Shown here: positions 34,188-43,328 of the stretch, piece after piece | Numbering within the stretch: position 1 is the first letter of the stretch | Layout: each line of letters starts with the position of its first letter | Source: Dactylosporangium sp. AC04546 | GTDB taxonomy: Bacteria > Actinomycetota > Actinomycetes > Mycobacteriales > Micromonosporaceae | Direction of reading: 5' to 3' | Length of the DNA: 64,000 bases | NCBI RefSeq assembly: GCF_022095675.1 | Contig: NZ_JAHYSG010000008.1 | Location: 124,001 to 188,000, forward strand | Program-made: the position numbers and the translations under genes | Notes under the pieces: model-generated | Told to the model about the DNA's origin: nothing | The model's database searches: none | The model's input: the letters and a program-made list of their open reading frames with translations, nothing else

Positions 34188-34230
34188 GCTGTGATCGACC
34201 GGCGGCGGGGCGTTGGTGCATCCTGATGGG

Positions 34231-34713
34231 ATGACCGACACCGAGGCCGAGCGGCAGCGCATCCGCGCCGCTCATTTGCGCCCCGCCGCCGAGCGGCCCG
34301 CGTCGACGGCCCGCGGCCTGCACCACACCGCCCTGATCTCCAGCGACGTCGAGCGGACCGTCCGGTTCTACCAGGACCTGCTCGGCTTCCCGCTCACCGA
34401 GCTCATCGAGAACCGCGACTACGCCGGGTCGTCGCACTTCTTCTTCGACATCGGCAACGGCAACCTGCTCGCCTTCTTCGACTTCCCCGGCCTCGACGTC
34501 GGCCCATACGCCGAGGTCCTCGGCGGGCTGCACCACGTGGCGATCTCGGTCGAGCCGGACCGCTGGCACGTGCTCGTCGCCCGCCTCGGAGCGGCCGGCG
34601 TGGAGCACGTCGTCCACAGCGAGGTCTCGGTGTACTTCCGCGACCCGGACGGCGCCCGCCTCGAGCTGATCGCCGACCCGCTCGGCGAGATGTACGGCAA
34701 CCAAGTCCTCTGA
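34231..34713 (+). CDS. VOC (glyoxalase/dioxygenase) family protein
   Basis: 160 residues with two betaalphabetabetabeta modules: LHHTALISSDVERTVRFYQDLLGF and LHHVAISVEPDRW. Potential metal ligands are the two histidines beginning each module and the acidic residue in DPDGARLELI. The start ATG 34231 has only a weak Shine-Dalgarno. It is coupled by TGATG to the next gene. Substrate unknown; glyoxalase, dioxygenase and resistance proteins share the fold. Confidence 0.88.
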   Translation: MTDTEAERQRIRAAHLRPAAERPASTARGLHHTALISSDVERTVRFYQDLLGFPLTELIENRDYAGSSHFFFDIGNGNLLAFFDFPGLDVGPYAEVLGGLHHVAISVEPDRWHVLVARLGAAGVEHVVHSEVSVYFRDPDGARLELIADPLGEMYGNQVL

Positions 34714-35196: not shown

Positions 35197-35224
35197 ACAA
35201 CCTTCCCATCGCGCGCGGCGTGTT
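35197..35224 (+). promoter_or_regulatory. candidate ECF-type promoter of the sigma-factor operon
   Basis: ACAACC (35197-35202) and CGTGTT (35219-35224) are separated by 16 bp, matching the general AAC / CGT layout of ECF promoters. It lies 50 bp upstream of the ECF sigma gene start and could mediate autoregulation. Confidence 0.4.
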
Positions 35225-35273
35225 GTTGCCGAGCGGCCGAGACAGGCGGCCGTCGATGGGGAGGAAGGGCAGT

Positions 35274-35810
35274 GTGATCAGTGTGCTTGACGGGGGCCGA
35301 GGGCGAGCGACCGACAGCTCACCCCCGCGCGGTGTCACGTTCGAAGAGTTCTACGCGGTGACGTTTCAGCCGCTCACCATCCAGGTGTTCGCGTATACCG
35401 GGGACCTGGCGGCCGCGCAGGACCTGGTGCAGGAGGCGTTCTGCCGGGCGCTCGCGCGGTGGAAGCAGGTCGGCGGGTTCGACGATCCGGCCGCCTGGGT
35501 GCGGCGGGTCGCCTGGAACCTGGCCACCAGCCGGTGGCGGCGCGCCCGGGTCGCCGCGCAGTTCGCCCGGCGGCATCGGCCGGAGCACGTGGCCGCGCCC
35601 AGTCCGGACCGGGTCGCGCTGGCCCAGGCGCTGAGCACGCTGCCACCGAAGCTGCGCCGCGCCGTCATCCTGCACTACCTGGCCGACCTGCCGATCAGCG
35701 ACATCGCCCGCCAGGAAGGCGTCGCCGAGGGCACGGTCAAGTCGTGGCTGCACCACGGTCGCACCGCGCTCGCCGCCCAGCTCACCGACAAGGAGGACCA
35801 CCATGGCTGA
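35274..35810 (+). CDS. ECF sigma factor (SigE-like family)
   Basis: 178 residues from GTG 35274, preceded by GAGGAAGG. The sigma region 2 segment is AYTGDLAAAQDLVQEAFCRALARW and region 4 is LPPKLRRAVILHYLADLPISDIARQEGVAEGTVKSWLHHGR. It directs RNA polymerase to a stress or surface regulon. Its last 8 bp overlap the downstream membrane protein gene, the typical place of an anti-sigma or regulatory partner. Confidence 0.92.
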   Translation: MISVLDGGRGRATDSSPPRGVTFEEFYAVTFQPLTIQVFAYTGDLAAAQDLVQEAFCRALARWKQVGGFDDPAAWVRRVAWNLATSRWRRARVAAQFARRHRPEHVAAPSPDRVALAQALSTLPPKLRRAVILHYLADLPISDIARQEGVAEGTVKSWLHHGRTALAAQLTDKEDHHG

Positions 35811-37072: not shown

Positions 37073-38023
37073 ATGACATTCCCGTCCTGGAGCCGTGCCG
37101 CGTTCGTCGCCGCCGTCGGCGACGCCGTCTGGGCACCGTCCATCCACAACAGCCAGCCGTGGCGGTTCCGCTACCGCGACGGCGCCATCGACGTGCTCGT
37201 CGACCCCGCACGGGCGCTGCCGGCCTGCGACCCGACCGGCCGGGCGGCCCGCGTGTCGTGCGGCGCCGCCGCGTTCAACCTGACGCTGGCGCTCGCCGCG
37301 GGTGGCGCGCCCGCGCGGTACACCATGGGATTGGGGGACACCGCGGTGCGGCTGACGCCCGATGTGCCGCGCCCGCCCACGCCGGCGGAGCGCCGGCTGC
37401 ACCGGCAGATCCGGCGGCGGCACACCAACCGCGCGGCCTTCGCGGACACGCCGGTCGGCCCGGCGGCCCTGACCGCGCTCACCGAGGCGGCCCACGCGGA
37501 GGGCGGCTGGCTGGAGCTCGTCACCGGCGACCGGCTCGACGCGGTGGCCGGGCTCGTGCGGACCGCCGACCGGGAGCTGGCGGCCGACGCCGCGTACCTC
37601 GCCGAGCTGCGCGTCTGGACCAGCGCCGCCGACCACCGCGTCGAGGGCGTCGACCGGCAGGCGGCCGGCGCCGCGCCGCACCCCGGCGAGCTGCTGGCCC
37701 GCCGTGACTTCGGCGGCGCCGAGCACGAGGACACCCACGACCTCGTGCGGGATCCGGTCGTGGCCGTCGTGGGCGCGGCCGGCGACGGTCCGGCCGACGA
37801 GGCCCGCGCGGGCATGATGCTGCAGCGGGTCCTGCTGACCGCGGCCGACCTGGGCCTGGCGACGGCGATGTACTCCCAGCCGATCGAGGTGCCCGCCGTC
37901 CGGGTCCGGCTGCGCGACCTGCTGGGCCGGCCCGACCTGCCGCAGCTGGTGCTGCGGTTCGGCTACGCGCCGACCACGTGCTACACCGGCCGCCGCCCGG
38001 TCGGCGACGTCATCGAGGGCTGA
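37073..38023 (+). CDS. Acg-like nitroreductase family protein
   Basis: 316 residues. The pattern APSIHNSQPWRF at residues 21-32, RRRHTNRAAF and the C-terminal LVLRFGYAP match the Acg/nitroreductase branch related to mycobacterial Rv2032, some members of which are thought to sequester FMN rather than reduce substrates. ATG 37073 follows GGGAGGGC. The gene stands alone after the sigma operon; hypoxia control by a DosR-like regulator is known in mycobacteria, but I see no clear DosR box here. Confidence 0.88.
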   Translation: MTFPSWSRAAFVAAVGDAVWAPSIHNSQPWRFRYRDGAIDVLVDPARALPACDPTGRAARVSCGAAAFNLTLALAAGGAPARYTMGLGDTAVRLTPDVPRPPTPAERRLHRQIRRRHTNRAAFADTPVGPAALTALTEAAHAEGGWLELVTGDRLDAVAGLVRTADRELAADAAYLAELRVWTSAADHRVEGVDRQAAGAAPHPGELLARRDFGGAEHEDTHDLVRDPVVAVVGAAGDGPADEARAGMMLQRVLLTAADLGLATAMYSQPIEVPAVRVRLRDLLGRPDLPQLVLRFGYAPTTCYTGRRPVGDVIEG

Positions 38024-38829: not shown

Positions 38830-38967
38830 TCACTGTGCCGTGAACGTGAGCAGGACCGACGCCGCCAGCCCGACGGCGCTGGCCAGGCAGGCCGCGGTGC
38901 GCACGGCATCGGCGGCGCGCAGCCGGCGGTACGGCCCGGCGGCGAACCCGTCGCGCTGCAGGCGCAC
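38830..38967 (-). CDS. possible small single-pass membrane protein
   Basis: 45 residues from GTG 38967. A basic N-terminal half (RLQRDGFAAGPYRRLRAAD) is followed by one hydrophobic helix (ACLASAVGLAASVLLTF) and the end TAQ. Its stop lies directly against the strong terminator at 38798-38828, which would be wasted on this strand if nothing were transcribed. It is divergent from the TetR gene (20-bp gap). There is no good Shine-Dalgarno, so a leaderless mRNA or a different start is possible. Confidence 0.45.
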   Translation of the reverse strand: MRLQRDGFAAGPYRRLRAADAVRTAACLASAVGLAASVLLTFTAQ

Positions 38968-38986
38968 GTGGGACGGGATCGCGCCG

Positions 38987-39613
38987 GTGGTGGGACAGCG
39001 TCGGACGTACGACACCTCGGGCCGCCGGCACCAGGCCGCGCTGCGCCGCGCGGCGATCCTCGACGCCTGCCGCACGACGCTGGAGGGCGCGGGCTACGCC
39101 GGTCTGACGATCCGCGCGGTCGCCGAGCGGGCGGCGGTGTCGCAGGAGACGGTGTACAAGACGTTCGGCAGCAAACGGCAGCTGGTGAAGGCGCTGTACG
39201 ACCGTGAGCTGGCCGGCGACGACGAGCCCGTCCCGATGGCCGGGCGGCCCGCCGTGCGCGCGCTGATCGCCGAGCCCGACTCGCGCCGGAAGGTCGCCGG
39301 CTACGCGCACCTGGCCCGGCAGGTCTCGGAGCGCATCGGCGCGATCGCCGCGGCGCTGGCGGCGGGCGGCCCGGAGGCGGCCGACCTGACGGCCGAGGCC
39401 GACCGCGAACGCCTGGCCGGCGTGACGGCCTTCGTGGGCCACCTCGCCGCGACCGGCCACCTGCGACCGGGCCTGGACCCGGCCGCGGCGGCGGACGCCT
39501 GCTGGGTGCTGCTGTCGCCGCAGGTGTACCGGCTGTCCACCGTGGACAGAGGCTGGACCGCGGACGCGTACGAGGACTGGCTCTGCCGGATGCTCGTCGC
39601 CGCACTGTTGTAG
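38987..39613 (+). CDS. TetR/AcrR family transcriptional regulator
   Basis: 208 residues from GTG 38987 (GTG 38990 is equally possible). The HTH region is GYAGLTIRAVAERAAVSQETVYKTFGSKRQLVKALYD. The C-terminal ligand domain ends VYRLSTVDRGWTADAYEDWL, similar to the TetR_C domain seen in many actinobacterial regulators. It is followed after 13 bp by the glycosyltransferase gene, a likely target or co-operonic partner. Confidence 0.88.
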   Translation: MVGQRRTYDTSGRRHQAALRRAAILDACRTTLEGAGYAGLTIRAVAERAAVSQETVYKTFGSKRQLVKALYDRELAGDDEPVPMAGRPAVRALIAEPDSRRKVAGYAHLARQVSERIGAIAAALAAGGPEAADLTAEADRERLAGVTAFVGHLAATGHLRPGLDPAAAADACWVLLSPQVYRLSTVDRGWTADAYEDWLCRMLVAALL

Positions 39614-39626
39614 GTAGCGTGGTGGC

Positions 39627-40583
39627 ATGCGGGTGCTGTTCGCGAGCCTGGCGTCGGCCGGGCATGCCTTTCCGCTCGTGCCGCTCGCGGTCGCCGCGCA
39701 GGCGGCCGGGCACGAGGTGCGGTTCGCTGTCGGGGAAGAGGTGCACGCGGCGCTCAAGCGGCACGGGCTCGCGGCCTTCCGGCCCGCCGACGCGTTCTAC
39801 GAGATCTACGCCGACGACATCGCCGACGACCTCGCGCGGCTGCGGCCGGACCTCGTCGTGCACGGGTGGGGCGTGCCCGGTGTGGCCGTCGCGGCCGACC
39901 GGGCCGGGATTCCGTCGCTCTGGCACGGGTTCGGGCGGCTGTTCCCCGACGGTATCGGTCTCGCCCGGCCCGGCTGCGACCGGCCGCACGTCGACGTGTG
40001 CCCGCCCTCGCTGCAGGACCCGGCGTTCATTCGAACCGCCGAGCGCGTCCCGATGCGGCCCGTGGAGGCCCACGCCGAGGCCGGGGCGCCGATCGTGTAC
40101 CTCACCTTCGGTACCGCATTCGGCAGCGCCGAGCTCATCCGGACCGCCGCCGAGGGCCTCGCCGGGCTCGGGCTGCCCGTGGTGGTGGCGGCCGGGCGGG
40201 TGCCGGTCGACGAGCTCGACGACCTGCCCAGCCTCGTCACCGTGCTGCCGTGGGCGGCGCAGGACCGGCTGCTCGCTCGGGCCGACCTCGTCGTGCATCA
40301 CGGCGGCAGCGGCACCACGCTCGGCGCGCTCGCGGCCGGGGTGCCGCAGCTGGTCCTGCCGCAGGGCGCCGACCAGTTCGCCAACGCCGACGCGCTCGTC
40401 ACCGCGGGTGCGGCGCTGCAGCTGCGCGACGGCGAGGTGACCGCCGGCGCCGTCGCCGAGCTGGCCCACCGGCTGCGGACCGGCGAGCACCGCGCCGCGG
40501 CCCGGGAGCTCGCCGCCGAGATCGCCCGCATGCCCGCGCCGGAGGACGTCGCCCGCGACCTTGTACGGTACGTGCGTGCATGA
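39627..40583 (+). CDS. glycosyltransferase, GT1/MGT type
   Basis: 318 residues. An N-terminal MRVLFASLASAGHAFPLVPLA acceptor domain is followed by a C-terminal donor domain with the nucleotide-sugar signature LVVHHGGSGTTLGALAAGVPQLVLPQGADQF (conserved HGGxGT). Relatives transfer sugars to macrolides, antibiotics or xenobiotics using NDP-sugars. It is shorter than typical MGTs (about 380-400) because the N-terminal domain is compact. Its end overlaps the HPF1-like gene by 8 bp. Confidence 0.9.
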   Translation: MRVLFASLASAGHAFPLVPLAVAAQAAGHEVRFAVGEEVHAALKRHGLAAFRPADAFYEIYADDIADDLARLRPDLVVHGWGVPGVAVAADRAGIPSLWHGFGRLFPDGIGLARPGCDRPHVDVCPPSLQDPAFIRTAERVPMRPVEAHAEAGAPIVYLTFGTAFGSAELIRTAAEGLAGLGLPVVVAAGRVPVDELDDLPSLVTVLPWAAQDRLLARADLVVHHGGSGTTLGALAAGVPQLVLPQGADQFANADALVTAGAALQLRDGEVTAGAVAELAHRLRTGEHRAAARELAAEIARMPAPEDVARDLVRYVRA

Positions 40584-41475
40584 GCGATTCCCCGAGGCCG
40601 AGGCGTGGCTGCGGCGGGTCTACGGGCTGCGCCTGCCCCGCCACCTCGGCGTCTTCGCGGAGTTCTGGCAGGGGCTGACCGACGACGAGCGGGCCGGGAT
40701 GCGGTACCTCGGCCTCAGCCCGTGGGGCATCAGCGAGCTGTTCGACGAGGGCGGCGTCGACCGCACCCCGCGCGACGGCCTCGACCCGCGCCTGGACTGC
40801 CGGTTCCGCCGCGACCCGGCCGAGTTCGTGACCGTCATGAGCGGCGACAGCGACGGCCTGCACTTCGGGCTCTGGTACGACGATCCGGCCGAGCTGCCCT
40901 CGTTCATCGCCTACAACTACGCCCGCGACTCCGCGGAGACGTGGACGCAGCGCTCGCCGACCGTGCTGGCCGAGATCGGCCGCCGGGTCGCCGACGCCCG
41001 CCACGACGCCCAATACGATCACGAGATGGCGGAGGGTCTGGCGGTACTGCAGCCGCTGGAGTCGAAGCTGGAAGCGTTCGCCGACGCGGACCGGGCCGCC
41101 CTCGACGCCGACGGGCCGCGCCGCTGGGCCGACGCCGCCCGGCCGCCCGGCGGGGTGACCCTCGGCGGGGCCCTGCCGCCCGGCAGCGGCGCCACCCGCG
41201 CCGGCCAGTCGTTCGAGCGCATGGACGCGTACCGCGCCGACCCGGCGGCCGCCGAGGCGATCATCGCCGAGGCCCGGGCGGAGCTGGCCGACGGCTTCCC
41301 GGCGTACGCGCTGAGCGTCGGCTCGGAGCTGCACTGGTGGGACGGCGACCCGTTCCGCGCCGCCGCGACCGAGCTGCTCACCGGCGCGTACCGGGCGCTG
41401 GGCCGCGAGGCGCTCGCCGAGATCGTCGAGGTCCACCACGCCAACCGGGACCTGCGCTCGGTCGACGTCCTCTGA
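40576..41475 (+). CDS. probable HPF1-like (DUF2228) protein
   Basis: 299 residues from GTG 40576. Hand alignment with human histone PARylation factor 1 as I recall it shows collinear similarity: YGLRLPRHLGVFAEFW (16-31) with YKLSLPEDFYHFW, FRRDPAEFVTVMSGD (77-91) with FYYDPPEFQTIIIGD, FGLWYDDPAELPSFIAYNYA (97-116) with [20 protein letters not shown], and REALAEIVEVHHANR (277-291) with RNLFAEIIEEHLANR. HPF1 completes the PARP1/2 active site for serine ADP-ribosylation. Its catalytic Glu284 aligns by eye with Asp239 here. No PARP gene is in the window. Overlap with the glycosyltransferase suggests co-translation. Family call fairly confident; function unknown. Confidence 0.7.
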   Translation: MHERFPEAEAWLRRVYGLRLPRHLGVFAEFWQGLTDDERAGMRYLGLSPWGISELFDEGGVDRTPRDGLDPRLDCRFRRDPAEFVTVMSGDSDGLHFGLWYDDPAELPSFIAYNYARDSAETWTQRSPTVLAEIGRRVADARHDAQYDHEMAEGLAVLQPLESKLEAFADADRAALDADGPRRWADAARPPGGVTLGGALPPGSGATRAGQSFERMDAYRADPAAAEAIIAEARAELADGFPAYALSVGSELHWWDGDPFRAAATELLTGAYRALGREALAEIVEVHHANRDLRSVDVL

Positions 41476-41498: not shown

Positions 41499-41855
41499 TC
41501 AGCGCTGCCGCAGCGCGGCCTCGACGATGCGGAGCGCCTCGCCCGGGTCGAGGCCGAGGCCGGCGACCACGGCGGCGTACTCGTCGGCGGCCCGCCGGGC
41601 CCGCTCGCGGGTCTCCTGCCCGGCGGCGGAGACGAACGAGCCGGCCCGGCCGCGGGTCTCGACAAGCCCGGCCTCCTCCAGCTCGCGGTACGCGCGGGCG
41701 ACCGTGTTGACGGCCAGCCCCAGCTCGGCGGCGAGCGCCCGGACCGTGGGCAGCCGCTCACCGACGGCGAGGGTGCGGTCCTGGATCTGCCGGGCGACCT
41801 GGCGGCGCAGCTGCTCGTAGGGCGGGACGGACGAGCCCGGGTCGATGGTGATCAC
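41499..41855 (-). CDS. GntR family transcriptional regulator (YtrA-like)
   Basis: 118 residues from GTG 41855. The winged helix is YEQLRRQVARQIQDRTLAVGERLPTVRALAAELGLAVNTVARAYRELEEAGLVETRGRAGSFV, followed only by a short helical tail, the layout of the YtrA subfamily. It overlaps the upstream GNAT gene by GTGA. Such regulators often control adjacent ABC or membrane genes, but none is next to it here. Confidence 0.9.
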   Translation of the reverse strand: MITIDPGSSVPPYEQLRRQVARQIQDRTLAVGERLPTVRALAAELGLAVNTVARAYRELEEAGLVETRGRAGSFVSAAGQETRERARRAADEYAAVVAGLGLDPGEALRIVEAALRQR

Positions 41856-42493
41856 GGCGCCACCAGCAGCGCCTCGGCGCCGACCGGGCGGAACCCGGCG
41901 GCCTGGAACGCGCGCACGCTGCGGGCGTGGCCGGCGGCCTGCTGCGCCCAGACGGGCTGCCCCGGCGGTACCAGATGACGGGCCGCGACGGCCAGCGCAC
42001 GGCCGAGGCCCGGGTGCGGCGTGTCCGGGTCGACCTCGACAGCGGCCTCCCACCGGCCGGCGACGCCGCGGCCCAGCGCGACGATCCCGCCGTCGGCCGC
42101 CCAGACCCGCACGTCGTCGCGGTGCCGCCGGGCCCGCACCACCCGCGGGTGCCCGGGGTCGGCCAGCTCGCGCAGCGGCAGCGGCGGCGGACCGGCGAGC
42201 GCCGGCGCGACGGTCAGCAGGTCGATGGTGTCCATGACCCGGCCGGTCCGGTCGAGCAGGGCGGCGAGGAACCGGGGGTGCATCGTGGCGGCGAGGGGAT
42301 CGCTGTCGATCGTCTTGAGGGTGTCGTACACCCAGTCGGGATCGTCGTCGACGAAGACGACCGAGTGCGCGGAGAACGCGACCACTCCCGCGTCGCGGGG
42401 CCCCGGCTGCGGCACGACGGTGGTGCCGCCGTCGGCCGGCGGGAACCGCCCCTCGGCCGCGGCGTCGAGCAGTTCCGCGAGCGTCTGGCCCAT
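41852..42493 (-). CDS. GNAT family N-acetyltransferase-like protein
   Basis: 213 residues. The N-terminal half (SAHSVVFVDDDPDWVYDTLKTIDSDPLAATMHPRF) has no clear assignment. The C-terminal half resembles a GNAT domain, with acetyl-CoA-binding-like VDPDTPHPGLGRALAVAARHL and SVRAFQAAGFRPVGAEALL. The substrate is unknown. Coupled to the GntR regulator downstream by a 4-bp overlap. Confidence 0.75.
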   Translation of the reverse strand: MGQTLAELLDAAAEGRFPPADGGTTVVPQPGPRDAGVVAFSAHSVVFVDDDPDWVYDTLKTIDSDPLAATMHPRFLAALLDRTGRVMDTIDLLTVAPALAGPPPLPLRELADPGHPRVVRARRHRDDVRVWAADGGIVALGRGVAGRWEAAVEVDPDTPHPGLGRALAVAARHLVPPGQPVWAQQAAGHARSVRAFQAAGFRPVGAEALLVAP

Positions 42494-42625: not shown

Positions 42626-43138
42626 TCACGCCCGGGCCCGGTGCGCGGCCACGTTGACCCGGTTGGCGCAGGTCAGGGAGCAGAACCGGCGCCGGCCGTT
42701 GCGTGAGGTGTCGACGAAGACGGCCGCGCAGCCGTCGCGGGCGCAGCGCCCCAGCCGGTCGCCGCCGGCGCCGCACAGTGCGACCGCGAGCCCGCCGGCG
42801 ATCGCGGCCCGGATGCGCGTGACCGGGTCGTCGGTATCGGTGATGTAGTGCAGGTGCGGCGGGTTGCCGTCGTGGGCCGACACCCGCACCGACGTGGTGG
42901 CGTCACCGAGCAGCTCGTTGACCAGCGCCAGCTGCCGCAGCCGGTCGGCCTCGCCGAACACCGGGCGGGCCCGCTCGACCCACGCCCCCAGCGCGCGAGC
43001 CTGCGTGGCGTTGCTCACGCGGCTCTGCATCTCGTGCTCGACGAGCAGCGCGGAAACCCTGCTCACGGTGTACTCAGAGGCGTTGAGCAGCGCCGCGGCG
43101 AGGAAGGTGCCGGTGCCACCGTAATGGTTGAAGTGCAC
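42626..43138 (-). CDS. CGNR zinc finger/ABATE domain protein
   Basis: 170 residues from GTG 43138. The C-terminal motif CARDGCAAVFVDTSRNGRRRFCSLTCANRV is the CGNR zinc finger (CxxxxC...CSxxC). The N-terminal part matches the ABATE ligand-binding-like domain found in actinobacterial regulators. It is divergent, with a 25-bp gap, from a zinc-ribbon/hypothetical pair and may regulate it. Probably a stress-linked DNA-binding protein. Confidence 0.88.
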   Translation of the reverse strand: MHFNHYGGTGTFLAAALLNASEYTVSRVSALLVEHEMQSRVSNATQARALGAWVERARPVFGEADRLRQLALVNELLGDATTSVRVSAHDGNPPHLHYITDTDDPVTRIRAAIAGGLAVALCGAGGDRLGRCARDGCAAVFVDTSRNGRRRFCSLTCANRVNVAAHRARA

Positions 43139-43163
43139 AAGGCCATTACAGCACGCTGGTCCC

Positions 43164-43328
43164 ATGACCACCTGCGCCAAATGCGGCCGCGGTACCGCGA
43201 CGGCCGCCGTCGAGTCTTCCCACCCGACCTCCGAGGGCACCGTGCGGTACCGCCGCTGCGCCTGCGGCACCCGCTGGATGGAGCTGACCGGTCAGTTCCT
43301 CGCCGCCCGGACCCGGCCCGTGCGGTGA
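43164..43328 (+). CDS. small zinc-ribbon protein
   Basis: 54 residues. Two cysteine pairs, CAKCG (residues 4-8) and CACGTRW (near residue 32), form a likely zinc ribbon. It is coupled by GTGA to the next gene and divergent from the CGNR regulator. Stand-alone zinc ribbons of this size are often hypothetical. Confidence 0.7.
   Translation: MTTCAKCGRGTATAAVESSHPTSEGTVRYRRCACGTRWMELTGQFLAARTRPVR

What the first reader, a model, noticed from the sequence alone, without database searches (positions are those of the whole stretch)
40576..41475. Probable bacterial homologue of histone PARylation factor 1 (HPF1)
The 299-residue protein aligns by eye with human HPF1 along its whole length, including the xDPxEFxT, GxxxDxPxExP and AEI(I/V)ExHxANR segments, and a possible Asp in place of the catalytic Glu284. 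Eukaryotic HPF1 redirects PARPs to serine; a bacterial copy overlapping a glycosyltransferase gene and without a PARP nearby is puzzling.
Basis: partly seen in the sequence, partly recalled or inferred. Interest (0 to 1): 0.7.

Follow-up and report, generated by a model that had tools for sequence, protein, structure and literature searches.

The report
Bacterial HPF1 homologue without a PARP
A soil actinomycete carries a real relative of HPF1, the animal protein that redirects the DNA-damage enzyme PARP1 to serine, but no PARP was found in its genome, so the bacterial protein probably does something else.

Summary

It is not unique: 221 proteins matched (120 listed), many named HPF1, DUF2228 or 'ADP-ribosylation family'. 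The genome has a second copy, 62% identical.

A PARP partner is unlikely: no PF00644 match over cut-off in 28 HPF1-bearing genomes, whereas the same search finds PARP in 7 of 251 Chloroflexota genomes. The PARP1-contact residues kept in animals (F280, D283, C285) and the Tyr238-Arg239 pair are mostly absent. Glu284 maps to Glu236 by profile (E or D in 118 of 126) or to Asp239 by loop length; undecided. The glycosyltransferase overlap occurs in 1 of 29 loci.

Best reading: a PARP-independent branch of the HPF1 fold, probably a binding or adaptor protein with an unknown target. Seven searches of open papers listed no description of it.

The parts
40576..41475 (+). HPF1-like protein, 299 aa, GTG start
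   Evidence: Pfam PF10228; structure
40576..40962 (+). N-terminal alpha/beta part (residues 1-129), with R76, D80-P81, E83, H96, G98, D102, P104, N114 shared by bacteria and eukaryotes
   Evidence: DSSP of model; shared residues; boundary chosen by eye from the DSSP
40963..41472 (+). C-terminal all-helical part (residues 130-299); shared Y272, R277, H287, R291; last helices resemble TPR repeats only weakly
41281..41292 (+). Codons of E236 to D239, the two candidate positions for human Glu284
   Evidence: E236 by gapped profile and multiple alignments; D239 by the gapless match and equal linker length
39627..40583 (+). Glycosyltransferase gene overlapping the HPF1-like gene by 8 bases; not part of a conserved pair
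38840..39613 (+). TetR-type regulator upstream of the glycosyltransferase

Best explanation
It is a genuine homologue of HPF1, with the same fold along the whole length (shown). It belongs to a patchy bacterial branch seen in Micromonosporaceae, another actinomycete genus (Actinocorallia), myxobacteria and one Anaerolineae assembly (shown by names). It most likely works as a stand-alone binding or adaptor protein that uses the surface kept since the bacterial-eukaryotic split (candidates: R76, D80, E83, H96, D102, N114 in the N-terminal part; Y272, R277, H287, R291 in the last helices) to hold a protein or ligand (inferred). It does not complete the active site of a PARP in this cell: no PARP was found and the PARP1-contact residues are mostly absent (presence and conservation shown; function inferred). 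Pairing with PARP1/2 and serine chemistry would then be an addition on the eukaryotic side to an older fold (inferred; the direction of evolution was not tested).
For: Homology and fold. Positive control: 7 of 251 genomes of the Anaerolineae phylum over cut-off, best E 1.1e-34. PARP1 contacts of human HPF1 are F268, F280, D283, C285 and K307 (PMC7884425, passages); of these F280, D283 and C285 are kept in 19 or 20 of 20 eukaryotic sequences. In the profile register the bacterial residues are E232 (no dominant residue), A235 (Arg in 72 of 126) and L237 (Leu in 99, Cys in 26 of 126); in the gapless register they are A235, A238 (Ala in 112 of 126) and G240 (Gly in 124 of 126). The Gly-Tyr-Arg invariant in 20 eukaryotic sequences lies opposite a gap of about 22 residues. 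27 positions carry the same residue at 90% or more in both groups. No neighbour family recurs in more than 9 of 29 loci, which fits a stand-alone gene.
Against: No function was measured. In the profile register an acidic residue at the Glu284 position is kept (E 92, D 20 of 120; 118 of 126) and Ala281-Glu284-Gly288 falls on A233-E236-G240. An aromatic residue at the F268 position is kept in bacteria (F, Y or W in 111 of 120). F268 and K307 are not well kept even in the 20 eukaryotic sequences (F in 11; K in 7), so their loss says little. Conserved arginines R189, R208 and R215 could stand in for Arg239. An ADP-ribosylation role therefore cannot be excluded. The shared residues are not concentrated in one part (15 of 129 against 12 of 170, p 0.22) and many are Gly or Pro, so they may be only structural.
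Confidence: 0.55

Rival explanations
1. It is an accessory factor of another ADP-ribosyltransferase-fold enzyme, for instance the RNA 2'-phosphotransferase KptA/Tpt1, completing or covering its active site as HPF1 does for PARP1.
For: KptA (PF01885, E 1.8e-37) lies divergently next to the HPF1-like gene in 2 of 29 loci (by called starts, L050 gap 14 bases, L052 overlap 11 bases). KptA matches in 22 of 24 HPF1-bearing and 125 of 176 other genomes of the family (Fisher p 0.046). 7 of 9 weak PARP-profile hits lie inside KptA genes listed. An acidic residue is kept at the profile-aligned Glu284 position. That KptA has an ADP-ribosyltransferase fold is recalled.
Against: The two loci are from one genus (g210); the other two HPF1-bearing genomes of that genus in the sample, G306 and G364, show no KptA match. 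The Fisher test ignores kinship and genome size and was one of several looks. KptA is common anyway (147 of 200).
Confidence: 0.15
2. It is a SUKH (SMI1/KNR4-like) immunity or stress protein in which the HPF1 likeness only reflects a shared N-terminal fold.
For: Some relatives are named 'Knr4/Smi1-like' or 'SMI1/KNR4 family protein SUKH-1' by UniRef. Recalled: HPF1's N-terminal part has been likened to this fold.
Against: Pfam gives HPF1 only, no SMI1/KNR4 match at E up to 10 (HMMER's filters drop weak ones). The match to HPF1 covers both parts of the chain. No toxin gene was recognised beside it, but most neighbours were not annotated.
Confidence: 0.1
3. It does partner a PARP-like enzyme too diverged for the PF00644 profile, giving serine ADP-ribosylation in bacteria.
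For: The HPF1 fold is complete; E236 or D239 could serve as the base, and the window protein has both.
Against: PARP is found with high scores in other bacteria but over cut-off in 0 of 28 HPF1-bearing genomes, and F280, D283 and C285 are mostly not kept.
Confidence: 0.1
4. It is a recent transfer from a eukaryote, without a kept function.
For: The family is patchy: 24 of 200 genomes of the window's family, 1 of 296 of its phylum.
Against: Best identity between any of 126 bacterial and 20 eukaryotic sequences is 27% (mean 21%), and the branch between the groups is long (2.9-3.9 substitutions per site, support 1.0). 39 columns are invariant in 33 bacterial sequences, so the split is old and the protein is under constraint.
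Confidence: 0.03

Closest known systems
Human and animal HPF1 (PF10228; PDB 6m3i, 6tx3, 6tvh)
   Different: About 22 residues with the eukaryote-invariant Gly-Tyr-Arg missing; F280, D283, C285 mostly not kept; Glu284 register uncertain; no PARP match in the genome
Bacterial 'HPF1 family' / 'ADP-ribosylation family' / DUF2228 proteins of Dactylosporangium, Actinoplanes, Catellatospora, Sorangium
   Same: 47-68% identical in the relatives listed, same Pfam domain
   Different: 37 of 126 relatives of 290 aa or more are 380 aa or longer, with an extra N-terminal segment of 109-165 residues that the window protein lacks
SMI1/KNR4 (SUKH) superfamily
   Same: Name given to some relatives by UniRef
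   Different: No Pfam match to it here; the HPF1 match covers a second, helical part

Membership tests
HPF1 (PF10228) | Profile match over the curated cut-off | tested here: met
   47.1 bits against 27.1, E 3.2e-12; second copy 45.9 bits
HPF1 (PF10228) | HPF1 fold over the whole chain | tested here: met
   [not shown]
HPF1 (PF10228) | Catalytic Glu284 of the joint PARP active site | tested here: inconclusive
   Gapped profile and multiple alignments give E236 (E 92, D 20, Q 8 of 120); the gapless match and the equal four-residue linker give D239 (A 78, E 15, D 10 of 120)
HPF1 (PF10228) | PARP1-contact residues F280, D283, C285 (kept in 19-20 of 20 eukaryotic sequences; F268 and K307 are not well kept there) | tested here: not met
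   Profile register: no dominant residue at F280, Arg in 72 of 126 at D283, Leu in 99 and Cys in 26 of 126 at C285; gapless register: Ala in 112 of 126 at D283, Gly in 124 of 126 at C285. Contact list from PMC7884425 (passages)
HPF1 (PF10228) | Conserved Tyr238-Arg239 pair | tested here: not met
   The eukaryote-invariant Gly-Tyr-Arg lies opposite a gap in bacteria and no conserved Tyr-Arg pair was seen in residues 180-215; the loop aligns poorly, and R189, R208 or R215 could replace Arg239
HPF1 (functional sense) | A PARP1/2-type partner in the same organism | tested here: not met
   PF00644 over cut-off in 0 of 28 HPF1-bearing genomes; positive control 7 of 251
HPF1 (functional sense) | Promotes serine ADP-ribosylation | not testable with these tools
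   needs biochemistry
SUKH / SMI1-KNR4 | Profile match | tested here: inconclusive
   No Pfam match of that family at E up to 10, but some sources use the name and weak matches may be filtered out

The most novel reading that the evidence does not exclude
The bacterial branch is an older HPF1 that completes or regulates the active site of a non-PARP ADP-ribosyltransferase (KptA/Tpt1 being the one candidate with any genomic link), so that active-site completion came before PARP1 and was later recruited by it.
Probability: 0.12. Interest if true: 0.85.

Novelty: new variant of a known kind. Interest (0 to 1): 0.5.

Why it matters
HPF1 is described as a co-evolved partner of PARP1 in the eukaryotic lineage, found in animals and a few protozoa (PMC4858568, passages). 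A full-length bacterial branch in genomes without a detectable PARP separates the fold from its known job. It offers a way to ask what the fold did before, or outside, serine ADP-ribosylation. The residues shared by bacteria and animals are also candidates for an unexplored function of human HPF1.

Tried and rejected
Virus or plasmid carriage: no relative in viral contigs, plasmids or phages. Defence system: no PADLOC match for two proteins. NCBIfam: no match. Conserved operon: the glycosyltransferase has no relative in the other 28 loci. In one search (ORFs of 90 aa or more, E up to 1e-12, the 40 largest clusters printed) clusters other than the HPF1 gene and frames overlapping it reached at most 9 of 29 loci. 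I recognised a sigma factor (9 loci; Pfam for the window's copy) and, by eye, an SDR enzyme (8 loci); several smaller clusters were not identified. Flanks were cut short by contig ends in some loci (L003, L005, L010, L011, L060). The gene caller did not place the HPF1 gene in 5 loci (L003, L005, L006, L009, L048), so its neighbour lists cover 24 of 29; the searches covered all 29.

HPF1 against PARP in the Anaerolineae phylum: HPF1 in 1 of 251 (the seed genome itself, a metagenome assembly whose HPF1 contig is only 10.9 kb, so possibly a stray contig) and PARP in 7 of 251, all other genomes. With one HPF1 genome this cannot test whether they avoid each other; I use it only as a positive control for the PARP search.

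Concentration of shared residues in the N-terminal part: not significant. SUKH-fold structures are not among the listed fold matches, which excludes nothing. A weak profile match to PA1076 (2k4v, E 0.085) was not followed. The tree printed a support of 0.053 for the node holding all bacteria, in a tree that was not re-rooted; repeated without the gamma step, the split of bacteria from eukaryotes had support 1.0 under two models.

In print: seven searches of openly licensed papers listed none that is evidently about bacterial HPF1. The listings were capped (for example 20 of 40, 20 of 130, 10 of 528), and of the papers I saw passages only (PMC4858568, PMC7884425, PMC10238386, PMC6445106, PMC10789625). 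The Nature 2020 HPF1 paper and the 2021 review of bacterial ADP-ribosylation were not held, so prior mention there is possible.

Full report
What is there. The ORF at 40576-41475 (+) is real: 299 residues, GTG start, 8-base overlap with a glycosyltransferase gene. Its start is supported by a relative that begins at the same residue (P0035). The window lies in a 13.0 Mb genome (348 contigs, completeness 99.75, contamination 11.54). A second copy, 62% identical, lies on another contig, and it too matches PF10228.

Distribution. 221 proteins match at E up to 1e-3 among 7995 candidates scored; the 120 listed include Dactylosporangium, Actinoplanes, Catellatospora, Actinocorallia, Sorangium and Myxococcales. 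A DNA scan found 12 named loci, one of them a 10.9 kb contig of an Anaerolineae assembly, which may be a stray contig. By family search: 1 of 296 genomes of the window's phylum (its own), 24 of 200 of its family and 1 of 251 of the Anaerolineae phylum (the seed). No virus, plasmid or phage record held a relative. Source names already include 'HPF1 family protein', 'ADP-ribosylation family protein' and 'DUF2228', so the family assignment is known to databases.

No PARP. PF00644 gave nothing in the own genome (which warns that no control rang). It gave nothing over cut-off in 12 of 12 named HPF1-bearing genomes or 24 of 24 of the family, own genome included. The positive control is: 7 of 251 genomes of the Anaerolineae phylum have a match over cut-off, the best E 1.1e-34; none of the seven had an HPF1 match, but with a single HPF1 genome there this says nothing about avoidance. 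Of the nine weak PARP matches (E 0.10 to 0.71), seven lie inside KptA genes listed. Other ADP-ribosyltransferase families were not searched.

Catalytic and contact residues. Human numbering was set by the printed alignment and agrees with residues named in PMC7884425 (passages). Gapped alignments set Glu284 on E236 of the window protein. That position is E in 92, D in 20 and Q in 8 of 120 relatives, and the pattern Ala281-Glu284-Gly288 then falls on A233-E236-G240. The gapless match sets Glu284 on D239. Secondary structure agrees with that: the bacterial helices end at 238 and start at 243, the Nematostella ones end at 267 and start at 272 (mean pLDDT 77.9, 75-78 here), the same four-residue linker. 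D239 is Ala in 78 of 120. I cannot decide between the two. F280, D283 and C285, kept in 19-20 of 20 eukaryotic sequences, are mostly replaced in either register, with Cys in 26 of 126 at C285 in the profile register. F268 and K307 are not well kept in the eukaryotic sequences either. The invariant Gly-Tyr-Arg (human Tyr238-Arg239) lies opposite a gap in bacteria, although R189, R208 and R215 are conserved nearby.

What is shared. In 126 bacterial sequences (those of 290 aa or more) and 20 eukaryotic ones, 27 positions carry the same residue at 90% or more in both: 15 in residues 1-129 and 12 in 130-299 (p 0.22, so not concentrated). Polar ones are R76, D80, E83, T86, H96, D102, N114, Y272, R277, H287 and R291. 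Identity between the groups is 15-27% (mean 21%), and the branch between them is 2.9-3.9 substitutions per site with support 1.0.

Context. The 29 loci are the window, the second copy and 27 others, from 28 genomes. No neighbour family reaches more than 9 of 29 within about 8 kb. The glycosyltransferase is beside the gene only in the window. KptA (PF01885) stands divergently next to the gene in two loci of one genus. KptA matches in 22 of 24 HPF1-bearing and 125 of 176 other genomes of the family (p 0.046 without correction for kinship or multiple looks). The other two HPF1-bearing genomes of that genus (G306, G364) have no KptA match. This is a lead, not evidence of a pair.

Conclusion. Fold and family membership are established. 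The functional analogy with HPF1 as a PARP partner is not supported for this organism. I take the protein to be a PARP-independent HPF1-fold binding protein (0.55). An accessory factor of another ADP-ribosyltransferase, KptA first, is the most interesting rival.

Noticed in passing
G000 contig C14:138691-139590 (L002; L045:7692-8591 -): Second HPF1-like gene in the same genome, 62% identical, with other neighbours.
   Followed up: partly
L050:8536-9135 and L052:8600-9190: RNA 2'-phosphotransferase KptA gene divergent from the HPF1-like gene with almost no gap, in two genomes of one genus.
   Followed up: partly
P0088, P0047, P0017, P0009, P0102, P0116: 37 of 126 bacterial relatives of 290 aa or more are 380 aa or longer, with an N-terminal segment of 109-165 extra residues; six long proteins scanned showed no Pfam match in it.
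   Followed up: no
[not shown]
   Followed up: no
L004, L009, L013, L014, L045, L054, L055, L057 and window 35220-35810: A sigma-factor gene of one family lies within about 8 kb in 9 of 29 loci; such genes are common in these genomes (recalled) and no background rate was measured.
   Followed up: no
L059 (G306:C17): A much more diverged HPF1-like copy, 36% identical, in a 533-residue frame.
   Followed up: no
window 42626-43270 (-), 41499-41870 (-), 37073-38023 (+), 34213-34713 (+): CGNR zinc-finger protein, GntR regulator, nitroreductase-family and glyoxalase-family proteins; ordinary surroundings.
   Followed up: no
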